From assembly GCA_017458265.1 (NCBI GenBank), contig JAFTFV010000025.1, positions 18,558-82,557 of the forward strand: a stretch of 64,000 nucleotides of DNA. The letters run 5' to 3'. The notes beneath the pieces are model-generated. The model saw only the letters and a list, made by a program, of their open reading frames with translations. It was not told the origin of the DNA and made no database searches. This document shows positions 3,638-46,954 of the stretch, in pieces; the first letter of the stretch is position 1; every line of letters starts with the position of its first letter. The position numbers and the translations under genes were made by a program. The DNA is from Bacteroidales bacterium. Lineage in GTDB: Bacteria > Bacteroidota > Bacteroidia > Bacteroidales > UBA932.

Positions 3638-3664
3638 CTGTTCGATGCACATATACGCATGATT

Positions 3665-3689
3665 AAGGCAGCCCGGGGAAGGCTGCCTT
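3665..3689 (+). terminator. Hairpin terminator after the GDPD gene
   Basis: AAGGCAGCC and GGCTGCCTT form a perfect 9-bp stem around a 7-nt loop, 27 bp after the stop codon. The following sequence is AT-rich but has no strong T-run, so termination may be partial. Confidence 0.6.
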
Positions 3690-3833
3690 GATTGAATAGT
3701 TTATATGGTTACGTTTTATTTTTCGAATTTTCAACCTTGCACTTTATAGATGCAAATTGTGACGGTTTCGTTTCAAGGTTATGGATTTTTCAGAGTTTTT
3801 GTCGATATTTGTATGGATTAAACGTTCAATATC

Positions 3834-4373: not shown

Positions 4374-4374
4374 T

Positions 4375-6027: not shown

Positions 6028-6033
6028 ACAGTT

Positions 6034-7431: not shown

Positions 7432-7448
7432 CCTGTTTCGACGCGCGC

Positions 7449-7540
7449 GTTGACATTTTGGGCCGTTTTTGCTTCCCTGGACGTCAATGATGACGTTCAG
7501 GGCGACAAAAATGGCATTTTTTGCTGCCCTGGAGGTCAAC
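7449..7540. repeat. Cluster of three 22-bp repeat units in the ALDH-DUF3575 gap
   Basis: The unit TTTTTGCTTCCCTGGACGTC (plus AA) at 7466-7487 recurs directly at 7518-7539 (TTTTTTGCTGCCCTGGAGGT plus CAA) and inverted at 7490-7511. The first and inverted copies make a 12-bp stem, CCCTGGACGTCA with TGACGTTCAGGG, around a 4-nt loop (7475-7502). The direct copies repeat with a 52-bp period. It may act as a terminator for the upstream gene or be a small repeat array. Confidence 0.7.
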
Positions 7541-7556
7541 TTTAGGTATTATTGCA

Positions 7557-7564
7557 TATATTTG
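7557..7564 (+). promoter_or_regulatory. -7 box TATATTTG ahead of the fimbrial operon
   Basis: TATATTTG is a full match to TAnnTTTG and lies 33 bp before the ATG of the DUF3575 gene. It is the only match seen between that gene and the repeat cluster. A -33 element is not clear. Confidence 0.55.
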
Positions 7565-7597
7565 TATTGAATACCCACAAAGTGGGTAAGGGCAGAT

Positions 7598-11211: not shown

Positions 11212-11319
11212 CGTGAAATGTAATAGGTTGAATGTTAATGGGCTACGCGAAAGGCTCCAGGGGAAAATGACTGGAGCGAAATGCGTAAATCATTGATGGT
11301 TAGAGGATTGCATTTCACG
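11212..11319. repeat. 108-bp inverted-end hairpin element, copy C
   Basis: It starts CGTGAAATGTAA and ends TTGCATTTCACG, near-perfect inverted ends. The exact centre carries the stem GCTCCAG/CTGGAGC around a 10-nt loop, flanked by TACGC/GCGTA pairing. Length, end sequences, loop length and stem position match the elements at 24026-24133 and 27234-27341, although the stem bases differ. It fills the gap between two fimbrillin genes. Confidence 0.8.
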
Positions 11320-11327
11320 GTAGCGAT

Positions 11328-23412: not shown

Positions 23413-24024
23413 ATGTCACTGAATAAAGTAATGCTTATCGGTAACGTTGGCAAAGACCCCGAAGTACGTTACCTTGAAAACAATCCCCAGAATCCGGGCG
23501 CAAACCCCAAGATGGCAAGATTCCCCCTCGCAACCTCCGAACGCTACCGTGACCGCAACGGCGAACAGAGGGAAGACACCGAATGGCACAACATCATTGC
23601 CTGGAGAAACTCTGCCGATGTTATCGAACGCTTCGTCCGCAAGGGCTCCCAGGTCTATATCGAAGGCCGCCTCCGTACCCGCAAGTACACAGACAATGAC
23701 GGCAAGGACCGCTACACCACGGAAATCGTAGTAGAGAACATCCAGCTCCTGGGCAAACGTCCCGAGGACGGCACCGCACCCCTTGCAGGAAGCCAGCCCC
23801 AGGGCGGCTATCAGCAGCGCCAGCCCCAGCAGGGCTATGCCCAGGGCGGTTACCAGCAGCCTGCCCCGCAGCCCCAGTACCAGCAGCCCGCCGGTTTCCA
23901 GCCTCAGTCTGCCCCCGCATACCAGCCCGCCCAGCCGCAGTATCAGCAGCCTGCTGCTCCTGCAGCCCCCGTTTCTCCAGCTTCCGCTGCCGGTGACGCC
24001 CCCTCGGACGATCTGCCCTTCTAA
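23413..24024 (+). CDS. ssb: Single-stranded DNA-binding protein
   Basis: A 203-residue SSB. The N-terminal OB fold (about 1-115) reads MSLNKVMLIGNVGKDPEVRY, DTEWHNIIAWRNSADVIERF and KGSQVYIEGRLRTRKYTDND. Residues about 125-190 are a low-complexity Gln/Pro/Tyr/Gly linker with repeated YQQP-type units. The protein ends DDLPF, the acidic tip through which SSB binds replication and repair partners. A 108-bp hairpin element starts two bases after the stop. The last 14 codons together with that element recur 3.2 kb downstream. Confidence 0.96.
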   Translation: MSLNKVMLIGNVGKDPEVRYLENNPQNPGANPKMARFPLATSERYRDRNGEQREDTEWHNIIAWRNSADVIERFVRKGSQVYIEGRLRTRKYTDNDGKDRYTTEIVVENIQLLGKRPEDGTAPLAGSQPQGGYQQRQPQQGYAQGGYQQPAPQPQYQQPAGFQPQSAPAYQPAQPQYQQPAAPAAPVSPASAAGDAPSDDLPF

Positions 24025-24136
24025 GCGTGAAATGTAATCAACTGACTATCAGTCGATAAGCCAAAAGGCTTTCCCCGATTTGGAGGAAAGCCTTTTATGT
24101 AAAGCGCTGATTCTGAAACGTTTACATTTCACGGGC
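23984..24136. repeat. Direct repeat A: ssb 3' end plus 108-bp element
   Basis: These 153 bp align without gaps to 27192-27344 with about 13 differences, and hold the last 14 codons of ssb and hairpin element A. The heptamer-plus-A sequence CCGCTGCA follows directly at 24136-24143 and also begins the other copy (27192-27199). Confidence 0.9.
24026..24133. repeat. 108-bp inverted-end hairpin element, copy A (bidirectional terminator inside)
   Basis: The ends CGTGAAATGTAA and TTACATTTCACG are perfectly inverted over 12 bp. The centre is AAAAGGCTTTCC, a 10-nt loop, then GGAAAGCCTTTT: a GC stem with A-run before and T-run after, which fits a terminator working in both directions between ssb and the convergent DUF262 gene. 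ACTGA-cta-TCAGT forms a small additional hairpin in the left half. Confidence 0.85.
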
Positions 24137-24156
24137 CGCTGCATGTAGCATCTGCT

Positions 24157-25329
24157 TCACCGGTTTCCCTTGGCCCGGTTGTGCGTCTTGCACAGCATCT
24201 GGCAATTCCCGATAGACGTTTCGCCTCCCTTGCTCCAGGCGGTGACGTGGTCTGCGTCCATCTCCGCAAGTTTCCATATCCTGGTCCGGTTGGCATCGTG
24301 GCCGATGGCGCAATAAGGGCAGTTTGATACACCATCTGCCTCCGCCTTCTCAGTCTGGGAGGCATACACGGCCTTCTTAGTTGGCTCATCGAACACCCGC
24401 ACATTTAGTAGACGCGGCTCCTGGCAACCTCCAAGGATGTATTCAAAGATGCCCTTCTTCTCCTTTACGTAGAAACTCTCATACAGTTCCCGTACCTTTG
24501 CCGCCACAGCCGCCGGGTCATAGGCCTGCGTGTGATACTTCTCATAAAGCTCGCCCCACTTCAGCCCGCACATCTCCTTCTCAGGAGCAATATCAAAGAC
24601 TGCCGTAATCCAGTCAATGACGGAAGTGAAGTAAGCCTTCATTTCGCCGATGCTCTCATCATACCTGTGTGCCGCCATATAATCCTCCGTATGCCCACGG
24701 CTTACCCAATCCAGCGCTGCAGCAAGGAAATCCTGTCGCTTTGCAGTACCGCTGATAAAGCAGCTCCACTTGTTGATGTTGGTGTTATTGGAGTTGGAAA
24801 ACTCTTCCTTGGCCTTCGTTACAAACGGGCCGGAATACACGGCGTTAAGGGTCTCCTGGGTATTAAGCGGGATACCCACAATATTTATGGTACGGAACCA
24901 GTCCTTGATTTCCTTCTCAGTACCCTCACATACATAGATGAGAAGTTTGGTTTTTAAGAAACGCTCCTGCTCATCCTTGTTGAGGGCAGTGAAATACCAT
25001 GGCTTTCCGTCCGGGTCAATCCATGCGAATTTCTCCGTGATGAAGCGTCCCAGGGAGGTGATGCGCTGCTGGCCGTCCAGAACCTCATAGCGGTCTTCAC
25101 CTACTTTGGAGAAATAAATAAGACCCAGCGGGTAACCGTTCCTGACACTCTGAATCACATCTACTTCCTTCTTGCCGCCGTTCTCGGCGTACAAATAATG
25201 GCGCTGGAATTCCGGCTGAATGGTCAGACGTCCGGACAGTCCGTAGAGGCCCTTGCCTTCGTATTCATTGTACTGGAAACCCTTGCAGATATCGCCGATA
25301 GTCCAGTCCTGGTAAAGTGTTGCTTTCAT
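24157..25329 (-). CDS. DUF262 domain protein with C-terminal HNH nuclease
   Basis: A 390-residue protein. The N-terminal DUF262 (GmrS-like, ParB/Srx-type) region has the nucleotide-associated motif [17 protein letters not shown] near residues 85-100 and [15 protein letters not shown] before it. The C-terminus is an HNH domain: CPYC, then [20 protein letters not shown], then [14 protein letters not shown], with the catalytic-type DH and the zinc-type Cys pairs. DUF262 nucleases include GmrSD and SspE, which restrict invading DNA using NTP hydrolysis. This one is fused to HNH and translationally coupled (ATGA overlap) to an adenine methyltransferase. That suggests a restriction partner whose cutting is governed by methylation (inference). 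It ends 24 bp from element A. Confidence 0.85.
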
Positions 25330-26465
25330 TGTTGAGGTTTTTTGCGGATGAGTATTCTTGCAGGTGCCTTTTTGGGGATTCCGTTTACGGTATATACAAG
25401 GCTTCTCATATTAGCTGTATAATGCCCGGTTCCACCGAATGAGCGATATCTATCCATCCAGTCCTTTCCAATAGGCTGAATTCCGATGTTCTCAGAGATT
25501 CCTTTTATGTCGCTACCAATAATCTCAAACTGTTCTGGACAGTATTTATCCAGGAACGAAATCGGAACGCCCATTATGCCGTCATAATCCGATGGAATGG
25601 CGTCAGTATATGGCACTTCAATCGCCTGATAAGTTTCATACACGGGGTACCCGCCTTCACGTATTTGCTTGTGCTTACTAAACCTTAAGTTGTCTTTCAT
25701 GGTCATTAGACTAAGAGGCTCATGACGACGGCCATGATCAATATTTGTCAACCAAACGGAGGGTACATTCTTCATGTTAATCCCATTAATAACCTTATCT
25801 ACGTCTGAGGCGACTTTAGTCTCAAACCACATTCCACCAGACCATTCTGTACGACCAGACCATATATGATTATTCTTTATTTCCGGAAAGACATCTTTGA
25901 ATGTAACACAATTCTTGTTGGCTAAAAAGAGGAACTTCTTTTGACCCTCCAATAGCCATTTGAAGAAGAGCGGGAAAATACTGAACGGAGGATTGGTCAC
26001 GATGATATCGGCCTCATCCCTAAGTTTGCAGACCTCTGGGCTGCGGAAGTCGCCATCGCCATCAAGGTAGTGCCACTCCAGATCATCTATGTCGATGCGA
26101 CCGCTACCGTTAGTGTCGCGGGTAAGTTCAAAGATTTTGCCCTTGATACGGGTCTTATCCACATCAAACAGCGGACTCTCCGTCTCAAAAAGTGTGGGCT
26201 CATAGTCCTTGTACTTCTTGCTCTCCACCGCATAGGATGTGCTGATAAGCCGTTTCAAGCCAAGCCTCTCAAAGTTCTGTGCAAAGAACCTGGTGAAGTT
26301 GCTCCATTCCGGGTCATCGCACGGCAGGAGCACTGTTTTGTCTCTGAATGTGTCTGGATTATACTCCAGATAGGCATTAATCTCTTTCTGGATATCGGCA
26401 TATTGGGTGTAGAATTCGTCGTTCTTCGCCGCCTTAGCAGCGCCCATATTGCTATTGTTGGCCAT
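25326..26465 (-). CDS. Adenine-specific DNA methyltransferase, EcoRI family
   Basis: A 379-residue protein. The start [20 protein letters not shown] and [20 protein letters not shown] are typical of the MT_EcoRI family. The catalytic motif IV is [20 protein letters not shown] (NPPF), about residues 153-170, followed by [20 protein letters not shown] and [10 protein letters not shown]. It should add a methyl group to N6 of adenine at a specific DNA site using SAM. No EcoRI-like endonuclease gene is nearby; the only nuclease is the overlapping DUF262-HNH gene. The gene is AT-richer than its surroundings, consistent with horizontal acquisition. The recognition site cannot be read from sequence. 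Confidence 0.88.
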
Positions 26466-26468
26466 TGG

Positions 26469-26696
26469 CTACCCTCTGGTATCACCGCTGGCCTGTTTGC
26501 GATGGGATTCATAAAAAGAAAGTGCAGGCCGCTTACTTTTACTGTCAAGTCGGGCCTCGGCAAACCGAGGGTGGAATCCCATTGCATCGAGTAATTTCGG
26601 ATATGCCCGCACTTCCGCTATCGTGTGAGCATAGCTCCGCCAATAGCCAGTGCAAGCGCTAACCATTACTCCGTATGCAATTTTGAACTTCCACAT
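26469..26696 (-). CDS. Possible small leader gene of the methyltransferase operon
   Basis: A 75-codon open frame, MWKFKIAYGVMVSACTGYWR to SHRKQASGDTRG, whose TAG stop lies 3 bp before the methyltransferase ATG. The only good promoter of the operon lies about 65 bp upstream, so this stretch is transcribed as the 5' part of the message. The protein is basic, has no recognisable domain and is not an evident helix-turn-helix controller protein. A GAGGG sequence at its end could be the methyltransferase ribosome-binding site. It may be a real small gene or just an untranslated leader. Confidence 0.3.
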   Translation of the reverse strand: MWKFKIAYGVMVSACTGYWRSYAHTIAEVRAYPKLLDAMGFHPRFAEARLDSKSKRPALSFYESHRKQASGDTRG

Positions 26697-26761
26697 TCGA
26701 CTTGAACGGAATAAAAGCTAATCGCTTTCTGTTATGTCTGCTTTCCTGAAGGATTGCATTG

Positions 26762-26793
26762 CAAATCTACAAAATTTCAGGCTCACGTCCAAA
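26762..26793 (-). promoter_or_regulatory. Complete Bacteroidota promoter for the methyltransferase-DUF262 operon
   Basis: On the minus strand TTTG (26793-26790), a 20-bp spacer and TAGATTTG (26769-26762) match TTTG-N19-21-TAnnTTTG. The implied start is near 26757, giving a leader of about 290 nt before the methyltransferase. Confidence 0.65.
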
Positions 26794-26820
26794 ACCCTGT
26801 GTTTACTGTGCCTGAAATTT
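26772..26820. promoter_or_regulatory. Operator-like inverted repeat around the island promoter
   Basis: AAATTTCAGGC (26772-26782) and GCCTGAAATTT (26810-26820) are perfect 11-bp inverted arms, 27 bp apart. One arm lies in the spacer beside the -7 box, the other just upstream of the -33 box. A dimer bound here would cover the promoter. Confidence 0.5.
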
Positions 26821-26879
26821 CATCAATATGATTCTAAGTACTAAAGCACACATTTGTTTGTACAGGGCCGAAAACGTGC

Positions 26880-27134
26880 TTTATGCGGGGGTGGCAGCAG
26901 GAAGGTGGAGGCGAATAGGAGCGAAGTGAATGCGAGTGCGGAGGAAGGGCTGTGCCGCGACAGCGGATGCCGACATTCGGGTGGGTGGTATTTCAAAGAT
27001 GGGACGTGGAGTCCAGACTGGAGGGTGCTCAATCGAAGGAGGGACGAGGCTTTTGGAGGCAAAGCCCTTTCTCCATGCACAAAGCATACGGAGTGACGTC
27101 AGCCTCCACCTTCCTGCTGCTACCCCCGCATAAA
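26880..27134. mobile_element. 255-bp MITE-like element with 33-bp terminal inverted repeats
   Basis: The left end TTTATGCGGGGGTGGCAGCA (continuing to 26912) and the right end (27102-27134) are inverted copies over 33 bp with one mismatch. GGAGGAAGGGCTGTGCC inside the left end has a weaker inverted partner, GGCAAAGCCCTTTCTCC, inside the right. No convincing open frame, promoter box or target-site duplication is visible. It sits between the island promoter and the right junction. Confidence 0.65.
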
Positions 27135-27192
27135 TAATCAGCCCGGGCACCAAATACCCCTTTTCCGTGTTCGCATGACAACGGGTCATTAC

Positions 27193-27238
27193 CGCTGCAG
27201 GTGACGCCCCCTCGGACGATCTGCCCTTCTGGGTGTGA
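27193..27238 (+). pseudogene. Remnant of the ssb 3' end
   Basis: The frame reads A-A-G-D-A-P-S-D-D-L-P-F as in the last codons of ssb, then W-V-stop instead of the TAA. An in-frame TGA lies about 20 bp upstream, so nothing longer is coded. It forms the left part of direct repeat B. Confidence 0.75.
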
Positions 27239-27341
27239 AATGTAAGCGGCTGACTATCAGTCGATAAGCCAAAATGCTTTCCTCGATCTGGAGGAAAGCA
27301 TTTTGCGTAAAGCGCTGATTCTGAAACGTTTACATTTCACG
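27234..27341. repeat. 108-bp inverted-end hairpin element, copy B
   Basis: Its ends are TGTGAAATGTAA and TTACATTTCACG. The central stem is AAAATGCTTTCC/GGAAAGCATTTT with the same 10-nt loop as copy A. The outermost G:C pair of copy A is T:A here, a compensatory change. As the T-run can serve either strand, it probably terminates the xylan operon coming from the right. Confidence 0.85.
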
Positions 27342-27354
27342 GGCTAAGTAAGGG

Positions 27355-30300
27355 CTAGAAGCGGAAGGTCTTGGTGAGGCCGCGGTAGGTGCAGCGCACT
27401 TGCCTTATGGCAGGGTGGCGCACTATGATGACTTCGGGGGAGTCGGATTCCGCCGATACTTTGGAGAAATCAAGGCCTTGCGGCATGCGGTAGTTGGTGC
27501 AGTCAGTGTAGCCGTTCTCGCCGGTGGCCCATTCGGGCACGGCGGGGGTATCCAGAAGGGCACCGTCATATTTGAACGTCACTTTGGGCGGTTCCGTGAA
27601 TTCCAGGGAGCCGCCTTTTTCAGTGAATCCAAGGCCGATAAAGTCGCAGAGCACATCGCCGGACGGCCCTTCTGCAACCAGATAGAGCGCGCGTTTGCCG
27701 CTGCCAAGGCGCTTGCCAAGAGCCGCCTTGTAGCAGGCAATATCGGCCCCGGAGCCCTCCGGAACGGTGATTTCGCCGATTTTCTCTCCCCAGGGCTCAT
27801 CGAGGACGACGTTCACCTTGAAGGCCGATTCTGTCCTTGCCGCAAGGAAGAGGTTGAATTCAGAGGAGGTGGTGAGCCCGCGTACGTCAAAGTACTTGAA
27901 ACCGGCATAATCGCCGCTGCGGACGCCCGCTATGTCCATGCGGTTGTCCCAGACATCGTAGGAGTCCTTCATGAGGGAATGGTCCGACAGCACGCAGGCA
28001 TAGCCGGCAGAATAGTATCGGAATGGAGGAAGGCCGTAGATGTGGAAGCCTTCGGAAGTGACTTCGGCACCTTTGTATTCGTCCCCGCCGGTTGTCTTGA
28101 GCGTGAAGCCGCCGCGGTAAGGGTCATAGGCCGTAATGCGCACTTCACCGCCCTCGGAGACCGGTTTTTCATCGGCCTGCACTGAAACGGGGGAGACCAT
28201 GGCCTGGCGGGCATAGCCGAAGCCGCGGGGGGCGCGGTGATAGAAGACGTACCACTGCCCGCCGATCTCTGCCAGCGAGCCGTGCGTGTTGTTGGCGCCG
28301 AATCCCGGAACAAGGGCGCTTCCGTCCCGGGACAGCTGCGGCGCACGCGCGTCCACCAGCACTCCGCCGCTCTTCCACGGGCCAAGCGGATTGTCCGAGT
28401 ACGCATAGCGCAGCGTGGCGTTGGACAGGCTCATGCCATAGTCCGGCCCGGAATGGCCGCTGTAGATATATACGTACTTGTTTCCAACCTTCCTGAAGGA
28501 CGAAGCCTCATAGAAATGGAACTCCTCGTCATTTACGAAATCCGGACAGTCTGAAGACCCGTAGCGGGGCTTATACGGCTCCAGCGGGTCAAGCTGCGTG
28601 GCGCTGGAGCGCTTGAATCCCCATGCAACGTATGCCCTGTAGCCGATGGGATAGTCGGGGTCGGAAGGGTCGTCGACGGCCTCCACAAGGGCGCCCGGGT
28701 CGAAGTCGATGACGCTGCCCGGAAGCAGCGTGAGGCCGCCGGGAGCAAGGTTTATGGGCGTGAAGGGGCCGTCAGGGCGGTCACCTTCGCACACCATGCC
28801 CTCACGGCGCCAGCCGCGGCTGTGCGGGAAGAGATAGTACTTCCGCTCACCGGTATCCCTCCTTGTCACTTCCATGATGTCCGGCGCATATATAAGGTCC
28901 CAGCTGTCTCCGGCCTTGTAGCTGAAGACGGGACCCTCGTCACGCCAGGAGGTGAGGTCCTCCACCGGGGCCGACCAGCACCTCACATCCTGCCCGCAGT
29001 AGCTGCTCACGCGTGTGTCGTGCGAGCCGTAGACGTAAACGCGGTAGTGCCCGGCATTGTCGGGGTCTTCGAAAACGTGCGGCTCTCCGTCCGGAACGTG
29101 CTCCCAGAGCGGCAGGTATGGGTTTCCGAGGCTGGAGGCCGTCGCGTAGGACTTGCCCGAGAACTGTGAGAAGTAGCCAAGGCAGGCATCCCTCCACCAC
29201 TGAGCATCCCTGAGATTGGTTTCAAGCAGCGTGGAGACCTCCTCAAAGTGCTTCCTGCTCACGTAGGGCTTCATGTCGGCCCATACCTCACAGAAGCCGC
29301 GGACGGCCTCCACTCCGCTGTAATAATGGCTGCAGAGTTCACTCCATAGAGTGCGTCCGGAACGCATCCTGTATTCCCAAGGCAGATGATGGAACCAGAG
29401 AAGCAGTTCTTCGGGACATGTTTCTGCGGATTCATACTCCGCAGCCAAAGGTTCATTGTACTGTGCAGTGGCACCCGAGCCGCTTGCAACAGTCCTGTCA
29501 AAGCCTATCCCGTCGGGGCCGGCTTTGTGATAATAGGAAGGCATCCAGTCCTTTCTGGCGCCCGGAACGTCGCACCACGGCTCCGGGCCGAAGTGATGCT
29601 CCCAGGCAAATAGATGGTGAAGCCCCATGGGCATCATATAGTCCACGCATGCCTCGCGGGAGGCCAGCATCACGGCCTTCATGGGCTCCAGGAACTTCTT
29701 TTCGTAGCGCTTCCTGCTCATGAGGAAGGGCCTTGGGAAGGTGATGCGGAGCCACTCGTCGGCAATCTGTTCAGACGTGAGCGTGGGGTCCCAGGCAAGG
29801 CGCCCGAAGGCGTACCAGTTGGCCTGGTTGAAGATATTCCCGCACCAGTTCTCATCCCTGCCGATGTTGGCGACGCCCGCGATTGCAGACAGCGGAGAGG
29901 CCGCCGTGACGGCGGCCACCGTGGAGCCGGGGCCGTCGCGGAAGGTATCGGCACCAAGGCATTCTTCCCACATGGGGGCCAGGAAAACCAGGGACGAGGC
30001 CTGTCCCAGATACTCCATGGTGATCTGGAGTTCCGGGGTCATGGATGTTTTGTGGAGACGGCCGAAAAGCGGGCTGAAGGGCTCCCTGGGCTGGAAATCC
30101 ACCGGTCCGTTCTTTATCTGGACAGACACGTTCTCCCTGAACTGCCCGTCAAGGGGCTCGAATTCCTGCACCGCCTGCATGGCCCTGTCGGGGCTGTTTG
30201 CGGCGTAGACGAAGGCCCTCCACATGACGATTCCGCCGTGCGGGGCAAGGGCGTCGGCAAGGCAGTTGGCGCCGTCAGTGTGCGAGCGGCCGAAGTCCTG

Positions 30301-30843
30301 CGGCCCGGGCTGTCCCTCGCTGGAGGCCTTCACGAGGAAGCCGCCGAAGTCCGGTACCATCGAGTAGATTTCCTCCACTTTGGCGTTCCACCAGGCTATG
30401 ACGGAAGGGTCCAGAGGGTCTGCAGTGGAAAGGCCGCCGAGGGCCATAGGCGATGCGAAATTCACCGACAGGTACACCCTGATGCCGTATTCCCTGAGAA
30501 TGTCGGCAATGGCGGCGACCCTCTCCAGATGTTCGCGGTCCAGCACCTTGGGCGATGCGTTCACATTGTTGAGCACCGTCCCGTTGATGCCTATTTTCTG
30601 ATTCAGGAGACCGTATTCCCTGATGCGCCCTTCCGGCACTTCTGCCGATGTCCACTCGAAGATGGACGGCCCTGCGTAACCGCGTTCAATGGTATCGTCA
30701 AGGTTGTCCCAGTGGTTGAGGATGCGGTACTCGTATGCGGGCGTTCCGGTGAGGGGAATGTCCGCATCGAGCCAGAGCCGGTCGTTGTTCCTTGTACAGG
30801 AGAGTGCAAGGAGAGTTAGCGCAAAGGTTACGAGTCTATTCAT
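27355..30843 (-). CDS. Alpha-glucuronidase (GH67) fused to a GH43 enzyme, lipoprotein
   Basis: A 1162-residue protein with a lipoprotein-like signal (LVTFALTLLALSC). Residues about 35-560 are GH67: RILNHWDNLDDTIERGYAG, KIGINGTVLNNVNA, GFLVKASSEGQPGP (probable catalytic Glu) and HTDGANCLADAL. Residues about 575-900 are GH43: YLPLWEHVPDGEPHVFEDP, WDLIYAPDIMEV and FHFYEASSFRKVGNKYV. The end (about 920-1100) resembles a CBM6-type module (FNLFLAARTESAFKV ... FIGLGF). GH67 releases 4-O-methyl-glucuronate from the end of xylo-oligosaccharides; GH43 would remove xylose or arabinose. The usual N-terminal GH67 domain of about 130 residues is missing: catalytic-type sequence starts right after the signal. 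The start overlaps the preceding GH43 gene by 8 bp. Confidence 0.85.
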   Translation of the reverse strand: MNRLVTFALTLLALSCTRNNDRLWLDADIPLTGTPAYEYRILNHWDNLDDTIERGYAGPSIFEWTSAEVPEGRIREYGLLNQKIGINGTVLNNVNASPKVLDREHLERVAAIADILREYGIRVYLSVNFASPMALGGLSTADPLDPSVIAWWNAKVEEIYSMVPDFGGFLVKASSEGQPGPQDFGRSHTDGANCLADALAPHGGIVMWRAFVYAANSPDRAMQAVQEFEPLDGQFRENVSVQIKNGPVDFQPREPFSPLFGRLHKTSMTPELQITMEYLGQASSLVFLAPMWEECLGADTFRDGPGSTVAAVTAASPLSAIAGVANIGRDENWCGNIFNQANWYAFGRLAWDPTLTSEQIADEWLRITFPRPFLMSRKRYEKKFLEPMKAVMLASREACVDYMMPMGLHHLFAWEHHFGPEPWCDVPGARKDWMPSYYHKAGPDGIGFDRTVASGSGATAQYNEPLAAEYESAETCPEELLLWFHHLPWEYRMRSGRTLWSELCSHYYSGVEAVRGFCEVWADMKPYVSRKHFEEVSTLLETNLRDAQWWRDACLGYFSQFSGKSYATASSLGNPYLPLWEHVPDGEPHVFEDPDNAGHYRVYVYGSHDTRVSSYCGQDVRCWSAPVEDLTSWRDEGPVFSYKAGDSWDLIYAPDIMEVTRRDTGERKYYLFPHSRGWRREGMVCEGDRPDGPFTPINLAPGGLTLLPGSVIDFDPGALVEAVDDPSDPDYPIGYRAYVAWGFKRSSATQLDPLEPYKPRYGSSDCPDFVNDEEFHFYEASSFRKVGNKYVYIYSGHSGPDYGMSLSNATLRYAYSDNPLGPWKSGGVLVDARAPQLSRDGSALVPGFGANNTHGSLAEIGGQWYVFYHRAPRGFGYARQAMVSPVSVQADEKPVSEGGEVRITAYDPYRGGFTLKTTGGDEYKGAEVTSEGFHIYGLPPFRYYSAGYACVLSDHSLMKDSYDVWDNRMDIAGVRSGDYAGFKYFDVRGLTTSSEFNLFLAARTESAFKVNVVLDEPWGEKIGEITVPEGSGADIACYKAALGKRLGSGKRALYLVAEGPSGDVLCDFIGLGFTEKGGSLEFTEPPKVTFKYDGALLDTPAVPEWATGENGYTDCTNYRMPQGLDFSKVSAESDSPEVIIVRHPAIRQVRCTYRGLTKTFRF

Positions 30844-31819
30844 CAGTTCCTTCTATAGTCCGGATGGTTCCGTCTTCGTTGTAGTGGAGTTCGCACACCT
30901 TGAGGCTGCGGAGGCGGTTGATGCCCTTTGAGGGAACGCTGTCATGATGGAAGAGCCACCACTTGCCGCCATACTCTACTATACTGTGGTGTGTTGTCCA
31001 TCCGACCACCGGGGTGAGGATCTTTCCCTTGTATGTGAAGGGGCCGTAAGGATTGTCGCCGATGGCATAGCAGAGGCAGTGGGTGTCGCCTGTGGAGTAG
31101 CTGAAATAGTATTTTCCGTTGTACTTGTGCAGCCAGCTGGCCTCGAAGAAGCGGCGGGCGTTGTCAGCGACGGTGATGGGCTTTCCGTTTTCGTCAAGGA
31201 GCACCACAGGGCGGGGCTCTTCGGCGAATTCCAGCATGTCGTCGCGGAGGCGCACCACGCGGGCGGGGATGGCGGGCTCGTCATCGGCAGGATAGGTGGA
31301 GCCTGTGTCCACTGCCTTGTTGTCCTTGTAGCGCTGGAGCTGGCCGCCCCAGATGCCGCCGAAGTAGAGGTAGTGCTTTCCGTCCTCCTCGAAGACGCAT
31401 ACGTCGATGGAGTAACTGCCGTCCATGGGCTTCGGAAGTGGGATGTAGGGGCCTTCGGGCTTGTCGGCAATGGCGACGCCGATGCGGAAGATGTCGGTCT
31501 TGTCCTTTGCGGGGAAGTACATGTAGTACTTGCCGTCCTTGTATGCCACGTCGTTGTCCCAGAGCTGTCGGCCGGCCCAGGGAACGTCCTTGATGTCAAG
31601 CGCGTTACCGTGGTCCTTCACGGGGGAGGTCATGGGGTCCGGGCCTTCGATGGAAAGCACGTGATAGTCCTTCATGTCGTACTCGCTGCCGAAGTCGTCG
31701 TCCGGAGCGGCCGAGTCCCAGTCGTGTGAGGGATAGATGTAGAGCTTTCCGCCGAACACGTGGACGGAAGGGTCGGCCATGTAGTCGGCCGGGAAGAGGT
31801 AACGCTTACTTTGTGCCAT
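30836..31819 (-). CDS. GH43 beta-xylosidase/arabinosidase, no export signal
   Basis: A 327-residue five-bladed propeller enzyme of GH43. YLFPADYMADPSVHVFGGKL holds the general-base Asp, QLWDNDVAYKDGKYYMYFPA is the second conserved blade and FFEASWLHKYNGKYYFSYS the general-acid Glu. There is no signal peptide, so it probably acts in the cytoplasm on imported xylo-oligosaccharides, which fits its neighbour, the GPH symporter. It overlaps the GH10 gene by 14 bp and the GH67-GH43 gene by 8 bp, so the three are translated from one message. Whether it prefers xylose or arabinose ends is unknown. Confidence 0.9.
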   Translation of the reverse strand: MAQSKRYLFPADYMADPSVHVFGGKLYIYPSHDWDSAAPDDDFGSEYDMKDYHVLSIEGPDPMTSPVKDHGNALDIKDVPWAGRQLWDNDVAYKDGKYYMYFPAKDKTDIFRIGVAIADKPEGPYIPLPKPMDGSYSIDVCVFEEDGKHYLYFGGIWGGQLQRYKDNKAVDTGSTYPADDEPAIPARVVRLRDDMLEFAEEPRPVVLLDENGKPITVADNARRFFEASWLHKYNGKYYFSYSTGDTHCLCYAIGDNPYGPFTYKGKILTPVVGWTTHHSIVEYGGKWWLFHHDSVPSKGINRLRSLKVCELHYNEDGTIRTIEGTDE

Positions 31820-32909
31820 TGATGTATTTGCTTAAGAAGGGTTTCATGTTGAAGCTGCGGTCGAACCAGAGGGGATAGTCCTTGCGTCCGGGGATGGGCC
31901 AGCCGTTCTTCCAGCTGTCATCGTCGGAAACGCCCCAGACGTTGATGCGGCGCACTGCATCGGCATTGCGGAGGAACATGTCAAGGACATCTCCCATGCG
32001 GGCGTTCCAGGCGGCGTTGACGTCCTCCGGAACACCGTTCTCATAGGGATTGAAGAACGCCTGGCGCTCTACGCGGGACATTTCGGCAATGTCGGCGCTC
32101 ATGGTGACGGTGGGGAGGATGCTCATGTCAAGCTCGGTGATGCAGACGTCCAGGCCGGTCTCGTCCTTCACCCTGCGGATGTGGCGTTCATAGAGGTCCA
32201 GGTTGGGATAATCCATGCCGATATGGCCCTGGAAGCCGAGGGCGTCGATGCGGATGCCCCTTTCCTGGAGGGTCTTTGCCAGCTTGATTGCGGTTTCAAG
32301 CTTGGCGGGAATGTGCATGGAGTAGTCGTTGTAGTAGAGTTCGCAGTCGGGGTCGGCCTCGTGGGCGCACTGGAAGGCCCAGGGGATGAACTCCTCGCCA
32401 AGAATCTGGTAGAACGGGCTGGGACGCCATTCGCCGTTGTCCAGTATGGCTTCATTAACCACGTCCCATCCCTTGATCCGGCCCTTGTACCTGCTCACGA
32501 CGGTGGTGATGTGCTGCTTCATGCGGGCCTTCAGCTCTTCGGGAGAGATCAGGTTGCCCTCCTTGTCGTAGCAGAAGTCAGGGGTGAGCTGGGAGTGCCA
32601 GATGAGGCAGTGGCCGTAGACCAGGAGGCCGTTACGGGTGCCGAAGTCGACATACTTGTCGGCCATGTCCCAGTTGTACTGCCCGAAGACAGGCATTATC
32701 TCTGCGCTTTTCATGCAGTTTTCCGGCTCCACGGCGCCGAAATGCCTCAGGAGGACGGAGTCTCCTTTGACATCGGCCCCGGTGATCTGGACGGTGTTGA
32801 CGGCGGCGCCAAGGATGAACTTGCCGTCGAAGGCGGTCTTGAGGGCAGGCTCCTTTGCGGCGCAGGAGAGGAGGATGCAGGCTGCGAGGGGAATCAGTAA
32901 GTTTTTCAT
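31806..32909 (-). CDS. Endo-1,4-beta-xylanase, GH10 lipoprotein
   Basis: A 367-residue GH10 enzyme with the signal MKNLLIPLAACILLSCAAKE (Cys about 16). It cuts xylan or xylo-oligosaccharides inside the chain. The acid/base Glu is in GWDVVNEAILDNGEW, and the nucleophile Glu in VCITELDMSILP. AVEPENCMKSAEIMPVFGQY and YGHCLIWHSQLTPDF are also characteristic. It is a single catalytic domain without binding modules, suggesting periplasmic or membrane-bound trimming of oligosaccharides. It overlaps the upstream GPH symporter gene by 4 bp (ATGA). Confidence 0.93.
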   Translation of the reverse strand: MKNLLIPLAACILLSCAAKEPALKTAFDGKFILGAAVNTVQITGADVKGDSVLLRHFGAVEPENCMKSAEIMPVFGQYNWDMADKYVDFGTRNGLLVYGHCLIWHSQLTPDFCYDKEGNLISPEELKARMKQHITTVVSRYKGRIKGWDVVNEAILDNGEWRPSPFYQILGEEFIPWAFQCAHEADPDCELYYNDYSMHIPAKLETAIKLAKTLQERGIRIDALGFQGHIGMDYPNLDLYERHIRRVKDETGLDVCITELDMSILPTVTMSADIAEMSRVERQAFFNPYENGVPEDVNAAWNARMGDVLDMFLRNADAVRRINVWGVSDDDSWKNGWPIPGRKDYPLWFDRSFNMKPFLSKYINGTK

Positions 32910-34330
32910 GAGCGTGCTTCTATTTCATGGTTGATCTGGTCCATGCGCTCGTCTGTGAGCTCATATTTGGAGATGATGTAGATTGCAAGGACAAGGAGGA
33001 TGGCAGGGATTACGCACACCAGCCAGAGTATGCCCTGGAGGGCAAGGGGAGTCTGCTGGGCGGCGCCGGCCTCGAATCCCACAATGGCGAGGACCAGTCC
33101 GGGGACAACTCCGCCAAGGGCCATGCCGGCCTTGAAGAAAATGCCAGTGAGGGCGTTTACGATGCCTGCGATGCGCTTTCCGGTGGTGTATTCGCCGTAT
33201 GCGATTACCTCAGGGACGAGGGCCCACATGTAGCCTGTTGCGGTAATGATGCCGGTAGACTTGACGAACTGTGCGATGCAGAGGAGGACGAAGTTGTTCT
33301 TTGTGGCGGGGATGGATACGAAGGTGTACATCATTGCCATGCCCAGGATTGCGATTCCAAGGAAGAGATAGAACATTCCCTTCTTGCCGATTTTACGCTT
33401 GATGGCGGGCACCAGCGGCATGAAAATGAAGGCGGGGATGGTTCCGAGCCACATGAAAAGGGTGGTGAGGAGCGGCGTTGCGCCCACGTTGTAGCTCATG
33501 AAGTAGGCATCGGCAGCGTTGCCGACGCTCATCATGGCGAAGGCCGTCACGAAGAAGAATGCAAGGACGCGGAGGGGCTTGTTGCGGACGAACTCCATCC
33601 AGAGGTCGCTCACCTTCACATCGGCCGATGCCTTCTGGTCCATAACCACCCTCTCCTTGCACTGGGAGAAGCAGAAAATGAGCAGCGCAAGGCCTGCAAG
33701 GGCGAAAATGGCCATGGTGATGAACCATGCGGGGGCCGCTTCCGGCGTGTTGTACACAGCCATGCTCTTGCCTGTTACGGGATCTGTGACCTTGGGAGCG
33801 AAGATGGCGATGATAATGGGCAGGGACTTGACGCAGAGGGCGCCGAGGTTTGCCATGAACATGCGGGTGCTGGTGAGGACGGTGATCTCGTCAGTGTCCC
33901 TGGTGAGGGAGGCGTTGAGGGCGCCGTAGGGCACGTTTACCAGGGTGTAGCACATGGACATTCCCACGTATGTCACGTATGCATATACCAGCGAGCCGCT
34001 GAATCCGTTCCAGAAGCACAGGATGGCAAGGCCCACCAGCGGAATGCCGCCCAGGATGAGCCATGAGCGGTATTTTCCCCAGCGGGGGTTGCCCTTGTCC
34101 ACGATGGTTCCCACGATGGGGTCCCAGATTACGTCGACAAGCCTTACGATGAGGAACATGAGGGCTGCGACGTCCGGCTTGAGGCCGAAAACGTTGGTGT
34201 AATAGAACAGCAGCCAGATACTTATGGTCTGGTAGATAAGGTTCTGGGCCATGTCTCCGGCCCCGAATCCTATGCGCTGCATCCAGCTCAGTTTGTAAAA
34301 GCCCTTGGCTTCAGTCTTTGTGGGGTTCAT
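32906..34330 (-). CDS. GPH-family sugar:cation symporter (probable xylo-oligosaccharide or xyloside uptake)
   Basis: A 474-residue membrane protein with about twelve helices, of the glycoside-pentoside-hexuronide:cation symporter family. Diagnostic are the N-terminal LSWMQRIGFGAGDMAQNLIY, DVIWDPIVGTIVDKGNPRWG (the conserved D-P-x-x-G block of helix 2-3) and YGALNASLTRDTDEITVLTS. It carries sugars across the inner membrane with a cation. Its position between esterase and xylanase genes points to xylosides or short xylo-oligosaccharides. No xylose-specific XylE-type transporter is seen elsewhere in the window. Confidence 0.9.
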   Translation of the reverse strand: MNPTKTEAKGFYKLSWMQRIGFGAGDMAQNLIYQTISIWLLFYYTNVFGLKPDVAALMFLIVRLVDVIWDPIVGTIVDKGNPRWGKYRSWLILGGIPLVGLAILCFWNGFSGSLVYAYVTYVGMSMCYTLVNVPYGALNASLTRDTDEITVLTSTRMFMANLGALCVKSLPIIIAIFAPKVTDPVTGKSMAVYNTPEAAPAWFITMAIFALAGLALLIFCFSQCKERVVMDQKASADVKVSDLWMEFVRNKPLRVLAFFFVTAFAMMSVGNAADAYFMSYNVGATPLLTTLFMWLGTIPAFIFMPLVPAIKRKIGKKGMFYLFLGIAILGMAMMYTFVSIPATKNNFVLLCIAQFVKSTGIITATGYMWALVPEVIAYGEYTTGKRIAGIVNALTGIFFKAGMALGGVVPGLVLAIVGFEAGAAQQTPLALQGILWLVCVIPAILLVLAIYIISKYELTDERMDQINHEIEARS

Positions 34331-34343
34331 ATAGGAAAAGGTT

Positions 34344-35906
34344 TCAGTTGTCCAAAATTGTTCTTGCGGTGCGCTGTCCTACGGTTTTCTTGTCCTGTGG
34401 GTGGATGTCGTTCCATTCGCCGATGTCTGCGTTGGGGACAAGGTAAGCGCCGGGGACGCGCTCTGCGGTGCGGCGCTGCTCTTTCTGTACGCGGTTCCAG
34501 CCCCAGTCGTTGTCCGTGAGCTCGGAATGCTCGAAAGCGGCAAGCTCGATGATGTAGAAGGGAAGATCCGGCTTGGTAAACTCTTCCCTGCATGCGCCGA
34601 TGAGCGTTTCCAGGAGGGTTCCGTATTGGGCGGCGTTGGTGCAGTTGCTCTCTCCCTGGTACCAGATGACGCCTGAGAGGGCATAGTTCTCAAGCGGGGC
34701 TATCATGGCGTTGTAAAGGCCGGCAGGCTTGTACTGGAGGAAGACCTGGGACGGCCTTGCGCTCATGCGCTTGCCGGGTTTGTAGTCCCATCGGCCAAGG
34801 AGGGATACTGTGCCGTCGGATGTTTCCAGGCGGTAGGGTTTGTCTGGGACGAAGTGTGCGGGATTGCCGCCGGCTGCGTAGAGGTGGATTTCAACTTCGT
34901 TCTCTCCGGCCTTGAGGACGCCTTCAGGCACACTGTAGTTCCTGGGAGGGTACATGTAGGTGGTGTTTCCGACGTACTGTCCGTTCACGAAGGTGGAGTC
35001 TGCATCCACAAGGGCGCCGAGCCTAAGAAGTGATGCACCTTCCGGTGCCTTGTCCAGGCGGAAGCGCTTCCTGAGGAGGTGGCTGCCGTAGATATTCTGC
35101 CCTTTCTTGTCCACCGCCCAGGCCTTGGAAAACATGTCTACAGGTTTCCAGGAGGCGTTTTTGGGGGAGGAAAGGGCGTTGTGGGCGTTCTGCCAGTCAG
35201 AGTATAGACTGGCGTTGAAACGGTTTATACTGTCAAGGACCTCAGGCTTCTGCAGTTCCTTTAGCTCCTTGAGGGCGTAATCCGGGAGGAGCTCCTCGCG
35301 GAGCCAGGCCTCGATGGGGGAACCGCCCACGGAGGCGTTTATCATTCCTACCGGAACGCCGGTCTCTTCCTGCAGGAATTTTGCCGTAAAATAGCATACG
35401 GCGCTCCAGGAGAGGGCTTTGCCGTCATCGTCCAGAACCTGCCAGGAGGTTTCGCCGATGCTCTTGCAGGGGCCCTCGAAATTGTATGCCATTGGCACGT
35501 TGAAATACCTTATTGCGGTGTTCGTATAGCCTTTTACGTCATCTCCCACAGCGTCCATGCAGCGCCTTACGGGAAGTTCCATGTTGGACTGCCCGCTGGC
35601 GAGGAAGACGTCGCCTACGAGGATGTCTTTCAGCGTGACGTCATTCACGGTGAGGGTGTAAGGCCCGCCGGCGGGGGCTTCAGGAAGTTCAAGCCTGAAG
35701 GCGCCGTCTTCACCGGCCTTTGCGGTGACGGTTTTTCCCTGCCATTTGGCACTTACCCTGGCGCCTGGCGTGCTGCTGCCCCAGAGGGGAACGGCCCTGC
35801 CACGCTGGAGGACGGCATGGTCCTGAAACAGCGCCGGCAGCGTTACAGGTGCCTTTGTGCACGAAACGGCAAGTATGGCAAATATGAGTGTGAGCAGTTT
35901 TTTCAT
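34344..35906 (-). CDS. Sialate O-acetylesterase-like / acetylxylan esterase (SGNH, CE6-type region)
   Basis: A 520-residue secreted SGNH hydrolase (signal KKLLTLIFAILAVSC). The catalytic Ser is in FLASGQSNMELPVRR (about residue 108), GVIWYQGESNCTNAAQYG is the conserved Gly/Glu block, and the Asp-His pair is in EWNDIHPQDKKTVGQR. In a xylan locus this architecture commonly acts as an acetylxylan esterase; sialic acid deacetylation is the older family name. A jelly-roll-like insertion (RLGALVDADSTFVNGQYVGN) lies in the middle. It is first in the five-gene operon that runs to the GH67-GH43 gene and is preceded by its own promoter. Confidence 0.85.
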   Translation of the reverse strand: MKKLLTLIFAILAVSCTKAPVTLPALFQDHAVLQRGRAVPLWGSSTPGARVSAKWQGKTVTAKAGEDGAFRLELPEAPAGGPYTLTVNDVTLKDILVGDVFLASGQSNMELPVRRCMDAVGDDVKGYTNTAIRYFNVPMAYNFEGPCKSIGETSWQVLDDDGKALSWSAVCYFTAKFLQEETGVPVGMINASVGGSPIEAWLREELLPDYALKELKELQKPEVLDSINRFNASLYSDWQNAHNALSSPKNASWKPVDMFSKAWAVDKKGQNIYGSHLLRKRFRLDKAPEGASLLRLGALVDADSTFVNGQYVGNTTYMYPPRNYSVPEGVLKAGENEVEIHLYAAGGNPAHFVPDKPYRLETSDGTVSLLGRWDYKPGKRMSARPSQVFLQYKPAGLYNAMIAPLENYALSGVIWYQGESNCTNAAQYGTLLETLIGACREEFTKPDLPFYIIELAAFEHSELTDNDWGWNRVQKEQRRTAERVPGAYLVPNADIGEWNDIHPQDKKTVGQRTARTILDN

Positions 35907-35910
35907 ATTA

Positions 35911-35960
35911 CAAAATTACATAAATAGAACCTGCCGAAACCGCAAAAATGTTTCGACAGG
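35911..35960 (-). promoter_or_regulatory. -7 box with adjacent inverted repeat ahead of the esterase operon
   Basis: On the minus strand TAATTTTG (35918-35911) matches TAnnTTTG, 5 bp before the esterase ATG. Just upstream CCTGCCGAAAC (35930-35940) and GTTTCGACAGG (35950-35960) form inverted arms with one mismatch around a 9-nt loop. The hairpin may be an operator, or a weak terminator for the GH35-like gene. Confidence 0.5.
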
Positions 35961-36033
35961 TATCAAAAACAGACCATAAAAGCAAATTTCGTTACATATC
36001 CTTTCGGATTTGTAAAGAAACGCCTTCCTGACG

Positions 36034-37488
36034 TCAGTAGCGATAGATTTTCAGGTGCTGGACGCCCACGCTGCCGGCCGGAATGCGGAGGTGCCGGCCC
36101 TGGTGGTCTTCGTCCCCGTTCAGCCTCCGCAGGCGCTTCCCGCCATCATATTCGTCAATGGAAAGTATGCCGATATGCCCTTCCCCGCCTGCCGGCGCCA
36201 TTGTGGCAACGGCCGCCGTTCCAAGGAAGAGGAACTCGTCCCCGCCGAGGTCCAGGATAAGGAATGCGCCCTCTCCCCAGTCTCCGTTTCTGACGGGCGA
36301 CCATGATACCGTTCCGTCATGCCTGCAGGTGAAGCGGATGTCTCCTATGACGATGTCTTCTTCCGGGTTCTCCCTGTCCAGAAGGACGCCGTATGCGCGC
36401 CCTGCGGCCTGTGCGGCGGCAATCTGCGGCAGATAAGGCGCAAGCGCTCTGTAGGCATCGGCAGTGGCCTCCGGGGCATTGTCTATGTCGAAGGGAGAAA
36501 AGCCGATGGCCCCGTGGCGTCCGAGGGCATGGAACACCCTTGCGGCATTTGCCGGCTCCTGGCGGATTTCAGGGATGAAAAGGGGATTACCCGGCTTTGC
36601 ATAGCGGGAAATCCAGTCGGGGAAGCCGGGGTCGTAGATGTCAGGGCTCATGATGTCTATTGCCGGGGCTTCTGCCTTCCAGATGTCCATAAGGTGGTCC
36701 AGCGGGCCTGCCGACGGGTACTCTCCTGCCTTGCGCCCGCGGGAATTCAGCGCGGCGTTCACGTACATCGGCAGAGGATATTCCTTCTTTCCGGCTGCGG
36801 CAACAGCCTGGGCGTATCGGGCATAGGCGCGGGCCTGGAAGCGCTCCTCGTCCCTGTCCCGGCCCTTGCGGAAGGCGGCATCGGCCTTGGGACCGTGCTC
36901 GCGTGCATCGCCGAGGAAGCCGATTTCATTCTCTACCTGGACCATGAGAACGGTGCCTTCAGCGCTGTCTGCGGCCTTCAGGTGGCGCATGAGGGCGGCG
37001 AAGGCGCGGGAGTCGGCCTTGAGGGATTCCCTGCAGAAGGCGGAAAGTATCTCCGGGGTGTCTCCGCTGCTGTTTCTTGCAAGGGTGAAGCGGGTGCCGA
37101 AGCCCTTTTTCACCCATTCGGGCACGTAGCAGGACATACTGTTCTTCCACGTCCCGAACCACAGCAGGACCAGATGCAGCCCGTTTTTCCTTGCACTGCC
37201 GATGAGATAATCAACCGAGGAGAAGTCGAATCGGCCTTCCTCCGGCTCGATGAGCTCCCAGTATACGGGGACAAGGACGGTGTTGAGGCCTGCTTCCCGG
37301 AGGGTTTCCCAGATATGCCTGCCGTTCATGTAATCGGCACTGGAGGCGCTTGAGTTTGCAAGTTCGCCGCCAAGGATGATGAAGGGTTCGCCCTTTAGCT
37401 GCAGCTGCCCGCCTGAGAGTTTTACGGGCTGTGCTCCGGATGCAATGGCGCACAGTGAAAACAGCAGTGTGAAAAACGCTTTACGCAT
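36034..37488 (-). CDS. GH35-like beta-galactosidase family enzyme (DUF5597-type C-terminus)
   Basis: A 484-residue secreted protein (MRKAFFTLLFSLCAIASGAQ). The TIM barrel shows PFIILGGELANSSASSADYM, NTVLVPVYWELIEPEEGRFD, LHLVLLWFGTWKNSMSCYVP and MVQVENEIGFLGDAREHGP, where the NE pair gives the probable acid/base. This is the GH35 catalytic pattern with the smaller DUF5597-like C-terminal region common in Bacteroidota xylan and pectin loci. It probably removes beta-linked galactose or a similar residue from side chains, but the specificity is not provable. It starts within the stop of the HTCS gene (TAATG), so it is co-transcribed with the regulator. Confidence 0.8.
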   Translation of the reverse strand: MRKAFFTLLFSLCAIASGAQPVKLSGGQLQLKGEPFIILGGELANSSASSADYMNGRHIWETLREAGLNTVLVPVYWELIEPEEGRFDFSSVDYLIGSARKNGLHLVLLWFGTWKNSMSCYVPEWVKKGFGTRFTLARNSSGDTPEILSAFCRESLKADSRAFAALMRHLKAADSAEGTVLMVQVENEIGFLGDAREHGPKADAAFRKGRDRDEERFQARAYARYAQAVAAAGKKEYPLPMYVNAALNSRGRKAGEYPSAGPLDHLMDIWKAEAPAIDIMSPDIYDPGFPDWISRYAKPGNPLFIPEIRQEPANAARVFHALGRHGAIGFSPFDIDNAPEATADAYRALAPYLPQIAAAQAAGRAYGVLLDRENPEEDIVIGDIRFTCRHDGTVSWSPVRNGDWGEGAFLILDLGGDEFLFLGTAAVATMAPAGGEGHIGILSIDEYDGGKRLRRLNGDEDHQGRHLRIPAGSVGVQHLKIYRY

Positions 37489-41549: not shown

Positions 41550-41571
41550 AACGTGTTGGTTTTTAGTGTCA

Positions 41572-41587
41572 TGTTACAAATGTAACA
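41572..41587 (-). promoter_or_regulatory. Perfect palindrome over the HTCS -7 box
   Basis: TGTTACAAATGTAACA is a perfect 6-bp inverted repeat with a 4-bp centre. On the minus strand TACATTTG (41584-41577) inside it is a TAnnTTTG box. TTTG at 41610-41607 could be the -33 box with a 22-bp spacer, slightly long. A regulator bound here would block or control HTCS transcription. Confidence 0.5.
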
Positions 41588-41607
41588 AAAATTTTGAAAC
41601 ATTATAC

Positions 41608-41642
41608 AAAAAAGCGGGCCGGCCATGTATCGGCCAGCCCGC
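41608..41642 (-). terminator. Strong intrinsic terminator of the SusC/SusD operon
   Basis: On the minus strand GCGGGCTGGCC, a 7-nt loop and GGCCGGCCCGC form an 11-bp GC-rich stem with one wobble or mismatch, followed by six T. It lies 29 bp after the stop of the last binding-protein gene and just ahead of the HTCS promoter, so it separates the two transcription units. Confidence 0.85.
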
Positions 41643-41670
41643 AATTGGAAATATGATGGATTGTGGTTGT

Positions 41671-43746: not shown

Positions 43747-43754
43747 GGTACTGA

Positions 43755-45245: not shown

Positions 45246-45247
45246 TA

Positions 45248-46939: not shown

Positions 46940-46954
46940 AATTCAATCTGTCTA

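What the first reader, a model, noticed from the sequence alone, without database searches (positions are those of the whole stretch)
23984..27344. A 3-kb defence-type island inserted into a duplicated ssb tail, with an 8-bp sequence at both junctions
Seen: 23984-24136 and 27192-27344 align without gaps over 153 bp (about 13 differences) and both include the last ssb codons and a 108-bp hairpin element. CCGCTGCA lies at 24136-24143 and 27192-27199. Deleting 24144-27191 with one CCGCTGCA would leave the two repeats in exact tandem. Inferred: a tandem duplication of the ssb 3' end was split by a segment carrying a methyltransferase and nuclease, possibly with an 8-bp target duplication, or the repeats act as recombination sites for gain and loss of cargo. 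No recombinase is present, so it would be supplied in trans. The ssb 3' end may be a hotspot for accessory genes in relatives.
Basis: partly seen in the sequence, partly recalled or inferred. Interest (0 to 1): 0.8.

Follow-up and report, generated by a model that had tools for sequence, protein, structure and literature searches.

The report
Restriction genes nested between palindrome repeats
In a gut bacterium, a pair of DNA-cutting and DNA-protecting defence genes sits between two copies of a gene tail plus a hairpin-forming repeat, and some related genomes show the same defence genes, at times beside a hairpin-linked transposase, at other hairpin sites.

Summary
In detail: 23984-24136 and 27192-27344 match at 140 of 153 bases, both carry the ssb tail plus a 108-bp palindrome, and they bracket a restriction-modification (R-M) pair. 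The palindrome is a dispersed family. In G073, the closest genome by ssb, two copies bracket a REP-type transposase (TnpA_REP/RAYT), and this genome (G000) encodes a 53%-identical one elsewhere. The methyltransferase occurs in 44 of 400 genus genomes. In seven of 30 fetched R-M loci the pair lies between direct repeats of REP-type palindromes of other classes; nine of 30 carry a RAYT. At orthologous sites, relatives show one palindrome pair, a RAYT alone, or RAYT plus R-M. Best reading: R-M insertion at a REP-type palindrome with duplication of the target, a new variant of the published 'insertion with long target duplication'. An 8-bp target duplication is not supported: the right 8-mer is part of the repeat, and short homology or chance suffices. 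The ssb 3' end is no hotspot for this cargo (0 of 24 other ssb loci). Who catalysed the move is unproven: this island has no RAYT, and RAYT linkage is 0 of 80 in named genomes. Interest is moderate.

The parts
23413..24024 (+). ssb, 203 aa, with the DDLPF tip; it ends inside the left repeat
   Evidence: PF00436 E 2.2e-34; ORF
23984..24136 (+). left 153-bp repeat: last ssb codons, stop, 108-bp palindrome
24026..24133 (.). palindrome copy 1, ends CGTGAAATGTAA / TTTACATTTCACG, inner stem AAAAGGCTTTCC; REP-type element
   Evidence: dispersed copies; fold; copies bracket a RAYT in G073
24136..24143 (+). left CCGCTGCA
24157..25329 (-). restriction nuclease: GmrSD_N plus C-terminal HNH, 390 aa
   Evidence: PF03235 E 1.6e-17, PF01844 E 7.3e-8; PADLOC REase_II E 7.1e-79
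25326..26465 (-). adenine methyltransferase of the EcoRI-methylase family, 379 aa, NPPF motif (motif recalled)
   Evidence: PF13651 E 5.6e-107; PADLOC MTase_II E 3.1e-74
26466..26837 (.). stretch upstream of the methyltransferase, beyond which nine of 30 relatives' loci have a RAYT gene
26838..27200 (.). segment 91% identical over 26842-27169 to an intergenic stretch of G073 contig C32; in G000 the orthologue of the right-hand part of that locus (C31) does not have it
26880..27134 (.). 255-bp dispersed element with 33-bp inverted ends (97% complementary)
27192..27199 (+). right CCGCTGCA, the start of the right repeat
27192..27344 (+). right 153-bp repeat: ssb tail without the stop codon, plus palindrome
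27235..27342 (.). palindrome copy 2; two of its differences compensate each other in the inner stem (G-C to T-A)

Best explanation
A type II-like R-M pair was inserted at a REP-type palindrome lying one base after the ssb stop codon, and the insertion left the target (ssb tail plus palindrome, 153 bp) as a direct repeat on both sides. SHOWN: the repeats, the cargo, the dispersed palindrome family, its pairing with a TnpA_REP (RAYT) gene in G073, the same R-M pair between direct repeats of REP-type palindromes in seven other genus loci, and orthologous sites of those islands with one palindrome pair or with a RAYT alone. INFERRED: that the palindrome is what is targeted; that single-strand cleavage by a TnpA_REP acting in trans, or breakage and repair at the hairpin, starts the event; and that ssb tail and palindrome were copied together in the joining. 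In this genome the route was probably messy, because the right part of the island (26838-27200) is a segment that G073 has at another locus.
For: In the distant relative G006 the same palindrome family follows ssb at the same position (one base after the stop) without this cargo, so ssb tail plus palindrome looks like host sequence that was doubled. In G073 two copies of the palindrome bracket a RAYT ORF (C24:85113-85221 and 86279-86386 around 85308-86282). G000 encodes a 53% identical RAYT (159 of 298 aligned residues) at C14:53513-54508. Seven of 28 testable genus loci, and the window, have flanking direct repeats of 40 bp or more, against 0 of 200 random segments; in the seven the repeats are REP-type palindromes. 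One REP class lies within 160 bp of the nuclease stop in 7 of 29 loci, where its density elsewhere predicts 0.008 per stretch (model made partly from these loci). Site 1: G318 has one REP pair between the two neighbours, where G331 has identical 133-bp repeats around R-M plus RAYT and G142 a diverged version. Cargo GC is 49.0% against 55.5% for the window.
Against: The window's island carries no RAYT, and its palindrome is of another class than those around the relatives' islands. In the named set RAYT linkage is 0 of 80 (for the two RAYT groups used as queries) and flanking repeats occur in 6 of 79 testable loci, three of them weak, so most copies of this R-M pair sit without REPs or RAYT. 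Of the 30 best RAYT matches given loci, 7 lie beside this R-M pair and 23 do not. G073 has no palindrome at ssb and does not have the next 32 kb at this place, with an inverted segment beyond, so the empty state of this very site is not seen in a near relative. The repeats differ at 8.5% of positions, so the event is old or the copies came from different sources.
Confidence: 0.6

Rival explanations
1. Campbell-type integration: circular or transformed DNA from another strain, carrying its own ssb tail plus palindrome next to the R-M pair, recombined by homology with the resident ssb tail and left diverged repeats on both sides. No transposase is involved.
For: The two repeats differ at 13 of 153 positions, with compensating changes in the inner stem, as expected of copies from two lineages. 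At contig C14 of this genome another gene tail plus palindrome (radical SAM gene) is doubled around two genes; the full copy matches G073 at 93.9% over 1073 bp, the stretch with the remnant and its neighbouring gene at 89.7% over 1402 bp.
Against: A donor with R-M next to ssb would be needed; in 28 other genomes with both places listed none is known within 10 kb. It does not explain why relatives' islands end at palindromes of several classes.
Confidence: 0.2
2. One reading: a pre-existing tandem duplication of the ssb 3' end was split by a transposition that made an 8-bp target duplication.
For: CCGCTGCA stands at both junctions and only there on this strand; removing the segment would leave exact tandem repeats.
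Against: No inverted repeat joins the insert ends and no transposase was recognised: the two genes are nuclease and methyltransferase, and the RAYT queries do not match. The right 8-mer is the repeat's own first bases, and a homologous G073 segment reads TCGTTTCAG where the window reads CCGCTGCAG, so the segment's own sequence runs into similar letters. Relatives' islands show repeats of 50-145 bp.
Confidence: 0.1
3. Assembly artefact: a metagenome-type contig misjoined at one of the repeats.
For: The genome is in 67 contigs with 3.2% contamination, and the junctions lie at dispersed repeats, where assemblers err.
Against: The ssb tail itself is not dispersed (two copies), and palindrome-bounded copies of the same R-M pair recur in other assemblies.
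Confidence: 0.1

Closest known systems
Insertion with long target duplication of R-M genes (Nobusato et al. 2000, Gene; Helicobacter pylori)
   Same: R-M genes flanked by a long direct repeat of host sequence; passages in PMC1643837 and PMC3031569 describe it as a pattern often associated with R-M genes.
   Different: Here the duplicated target contains a REP-type palindrome, and relatives of the island use other REP-type palindromes in the same way, some with a RAYT inside. The 2000 paper was not read; only citing passages were.
REPtron: TnpA_REP (RAYT) gene bordered by REPs
   Same: In relatives a TnpA_REP-family gene lies between REP-type palindromes, as in the abstracts of PMC2817692 and PMC6006769.
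   Different: Many of the units seen here have direct repeats where PMC2817692 reports inverted REPs; the unit can enclose an R-M pair and is present or absent between species. TnpA_REP is called domesticated (section of PMC8266576), and PMC2817692 found no signs of IS-like mobility (passage).
IS-linked movement of an R-M system (Takahashi et al. 2011, PMC3031569, passages read)
   Same: R-M complex between direct repeats that could recombine.
   Different: There the repeats are IS1 or IS5 copies, with 4-10 bp target duplications.

Membership tests
R-M insertion with long target duplication | insert consists of R-M genes | tested here: met
R-M insertion with long target duplication | long direct repeat of target sequence on both sides | tested here: met
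   153 bp including ssb codons
R-M insertion with long target duplication | related genome with a single copy at the empty site | tested here: inconclusive
   G006 has ssb plus one palindrome without this cargo but is distant; G073 has no palindrome there. For the relatives' site 1 it is met: one REP pair in G318
REPtron (TnpA_REP unit) | tnpA_REP gene inside the unit | tested here: not met
   RAYT queries do not match the window's island; met in nine of 30 relatives' loci
REPtron (TnpA_REP unit) | bordering repeats belong to a family linked to a TnpA_REP | tested here: met
   G073 C24 RAYT bracketed by two copies of the 108-bp family
DDE transposon with 8-bp target duplication | terminal inverted repeats at the insert ends | tested here: not met
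   none of the six inverted-repeat pairs found in 23900-27400 joins the insert ends
Integrase island at a gene 3' end | integrase gene in the island | tested here: not met
   the two genes are nuclease and methyltransferase; the longest ORF clear of them is 102 aa
Integron cassette | attC-type recombination site and integrase | not tested
   no attC model was run

The most novel reading that the evidence does not exclude
TnpA_REP transposases, described as domesticated, serve in this genus as vehicles for defence genes. A RAYT and its REP-type palindromes capture R-M genes (this pair, and beside some RAYTs a second methyltransferase set) and move them as single-stranded units between palindromes at gene 3' ends, duplicating the palindrome; islands such as the window's are RAYT-less units moved in trans.
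Probability: 0.3. Interest if true: 0.8.

Novelty: new variant of a known kind. Interest (0 to 1): 0.55.

Why it matters
How R-M genes without a recombinase of their own enter chromosomes with long target duplications is, as far as the passages read here tell, unexplained. If REP-type palindromes are entry points, the question becomes testable: E. coli TnpA_REP processes single-stranded REPs in vitro (abstract of PMC8266576), and this genus offers islands, RAYT-only sites and empty sites at the same places. It would also give TnpA_REP, regarded as domesticated, a part in spreading defence genes.

Tried and rejected
An 8-bp target duplication: rejected because the right 8-mer is the repeat's own start and a homologous segment in G073 runs into similar letters. 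ssb 3' end as a hotspot for this cargo: rejected. Known RNA families: no Rfam match at the gathering scores in the window and none credible in the stretch upstream of the methyltransferase in L123. Pfam did not recognise the main RAYT group: 0 families at E 0.01 for two proteins, and Y1_Tnp at E 0.054 in one of 10 members; its profile found no transposase in the PDB. It was assigned by profile comparison with a second group (99.2% probability, E 2.7e-19). Five of five members of that second group match NCBIfam's REP-associated tyrosine transposase model; the one score shown is under the cut-off (39.5 of 80 bits). The second group's profile finds IS200-type transposases (E 0.00016) and TnpA_REP (E 0.066) in the PDB. 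PDB sequence searches for nuclease and methyltransferase gave nothing credible. The idea that the island once lay at the C31/C32 locus could not be settled. Literature: in the listings I saw no paper linking TnpA_REP or REPs with R-M cargo; only the first 20 of 49 and of 279 papers were shown, and searches returned none. PMC3390384 mentions both but in separate passages.
Full report
What is there. The window is part of contig C52 of a 67-contig assembly, G000. Ungapped repeats 23984-24136 and 27192-27344 match at 140 of 153 positions. Each holds the last ssb codons and a 108-bp palindrome that folds well as single-stranded DNA (z -8.3 and -7.7). Between them lie a GmrSD_N-HNH nuclease and an EcoRI-type adenine methyltransferase, both on the minus strand, then 726 bases with no convincing gene (longest ORF clear of the two genes 102 aa) that include a 255-bp element with 33-bp inverted ends.

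The palindrome is a family. A blast search of the own genome gave 27 matches to the repeat, some of them the same palindromes on the other strand and some weak. A covariance model gave 44 matches in G000 at E 1e-4, roughly half as many places because a palindrome is hit on both strands, and matches in 41 of 61 genus genomes. Of 12 copies that I mapped against ORFs, about nine lie within 130 bases of a gene 3' end (counted by eye). Only the ssb tail is special to these two places.

Its enzyme. In G073 two copies bracket a RAYT ORF of 324 aa with a DHVH motif, the second copy overlapping the stop codon. The profile that found it comes from TnpA_REP-like proteins. G000 encodes a 53% identical protein (159 of 298 aligned residues) on contig C14. 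One search flagged one TGA in each of these two matches; in both the ORF runs uninterrupted to its terminal stop. A transposase able to act in trans is therefore plausible but not shown.

The site. G073, whose ssb protein is 92% identical, has ssb followed directly by a xylose isomerase gene (named by eye), with no palindrome and no island. In G000 about 32 kb more lies between ssb and the next stretch shared with that G073 locus, and one shared segment (window 56452-59297) is inverted. For 23800-39000 of the window, a search of the whole of G073 found the dispersed repeats and the end of ssb only; 39000-56452 was not searched there. So the island is not the only change at this place. Of 25 other ssb loci read, 24 have sequence beyond the stop, eight of them under 2 kb. 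One (G006) has the same palindrome family strongly, one base after the stop as in the window; one (L134) has a weak match (E 5.6e-5); none has the cargo by nucleotide match.

The cargo elsewhere. The methyltransferase is found in 44 of 400 genus genomes, own included. I fetched 30 loci from other genomes; all 30 have a nuclease relative beside it, two or three of them distant. Nine of the 30 have a RAYT beside the methyltransferase: L112, L113, L114 (partial, at a contig end), L118, L121, L123, L125, L207 and L208. The script counts eight, because its rule left out L121. Direct repeats of 40 bp or more within 1.5 kb on both sides occur in 7 of 28 testable loci, and in 0 of 200 random 3.3-kb segments of other fetched loci. 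In these seven (L112, L113, L118, L121, L123, L207, L208) the repeats are REP-type palindromes close to the nuclease end on one side and the RAYT on the other. In L207 they are identical over 133 bp. One REP class lies within 160 bp of the nuclease stop in 7 of 29 loci against 18 other sites in 462,380 bases, many of those being the far ends of the same islands; the model was made partly from these loci.

Results against a general rule. In 80 loci of named genomes linkage to the two RAYT groups is 0 of 80 and flanking repeats occur in 6 of 79 testable loci. By my reading, L287, L293 and L304 are convincing, L287 with palindromes, and L296, L305 and L343 are weak. At least three of the named loci have contig lengths equal to those of genus-set loci, so the two sets overlap. 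Most copies of this R-M pair thus sit without these REPs or RAYTs. The main RAYT group occurs in 142 of 400 genus genomes, and of the 30 best matches given loci 7 lie beside this R-M pair, so most of these RAYTs are not beside it either.

Same site, different contents (base level for site 1; neighbour genes named by eye). Site 1, between a transporter-like gene and a GH92-like gene: G318 (L254) has one REP pair; G331 (L207), G142 (L208) and G337 (L123, neighbour inverted) have R-M plus RAYT between REP pairs; G218 (L114) is cut by its contig end. Site 2, on the other side of the GH92-like gene: L254 has a RAYT between REP pairs, L109 has R-M without RAYT, L208 has about 100 bases with a single REP. 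Site 3, beside a uvrA-like gene: L113 has R-M plus RAYT and L258 a RAYT alone, each with one more stretch of other DNA, and L263 has about 100 bases. Site 4: L118 and L125 have R-M plus RAYT, L265 a RAYT alone; no flanking repeat was found for L125. Whether R-M entered RAYT units or was lost from them is not decided here.

Another cargo. Three further RAYT loci (L255, L260, L261) stand beside another set of genes that look alike by eye; the two proteins of L260 have only weak matches to DNA-methyltransferase models, under the cut-offs.

The 8-mer. The right CCGCTGCA is the first part of the right repeat. A homologous segment in G073 (C32) continues through the same place as TCGTTTCAG where the window has CCGCTGCAG, so the segment's own sequence joins the ssb tail where the two look alike. 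Short homology at the joint is the simpler reading; a target duplication is not needed.

Comparison with the known. Insertion of R-M genes with long target duplication is published (passages in PMC1643837 and PMC3031569; the 2000 paper was not read). REP-bordered TnpA_REP genes are published (abstracts of PMC2817692 and PMC6006769; passages; a section of PMC8266576). What I did not see in print, in the listings, is the link between the two. Hence 'new variant of a known kind'. The window's island itself is a RAYT-less case, and its mechanism is inferred from relatives.

Noticed in passing
L028 (G000 C14) 2710-7682: A second doubled gene tail plus the same palindrome in this genome: radical SAM gene tail and palindrome repeated (87.7% over 413 bp) around an AlkZ-like gene and a solute-binding protein gene; G073 has a single copy at that locus.
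   Followed up: partly
window 26880-27134; G073 C32:139573-139898; G000 C32:1375-1591: Dispersed 255-bp element with long inverted ends and a conserved core; in G073 one copy (C30:111-330) lies beside a distant R-M pair of the same type.
   Followed up: partly
L123 2950-3190, L209 8707-8925 and the same place in other R-M loci: A conserved non-coding stretch of about 170-250 bases upstream of the methyltransferase, shared by loci with and without RAYT and also found in L255, L260 and L261; no credible Rfam match for the L123 stretch.
   Followed up: partly
L255, L260, L261: RAYT beside a different gene set that looks like DNA methyltransferases, a possible second defence cargo; only L260's proteins were scanned, with weak matches.
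   Followed up: partly
window 56452-59297: Segment with the xylose isomerase region is inverted relative to G073, at the far end of about 32 kb that G073 does not have at this place.
   Followed up: no
window 11212-11320: A weaker third member of the palindrome family in the window (nhmmer E 1e-8).
   Followed up: no
L262, L266 (G053, G005): Similar neighbour genes lie in different orders around the RAYT in two species; inversion between inverted palindromes is one possible cause.
   Followed up: no
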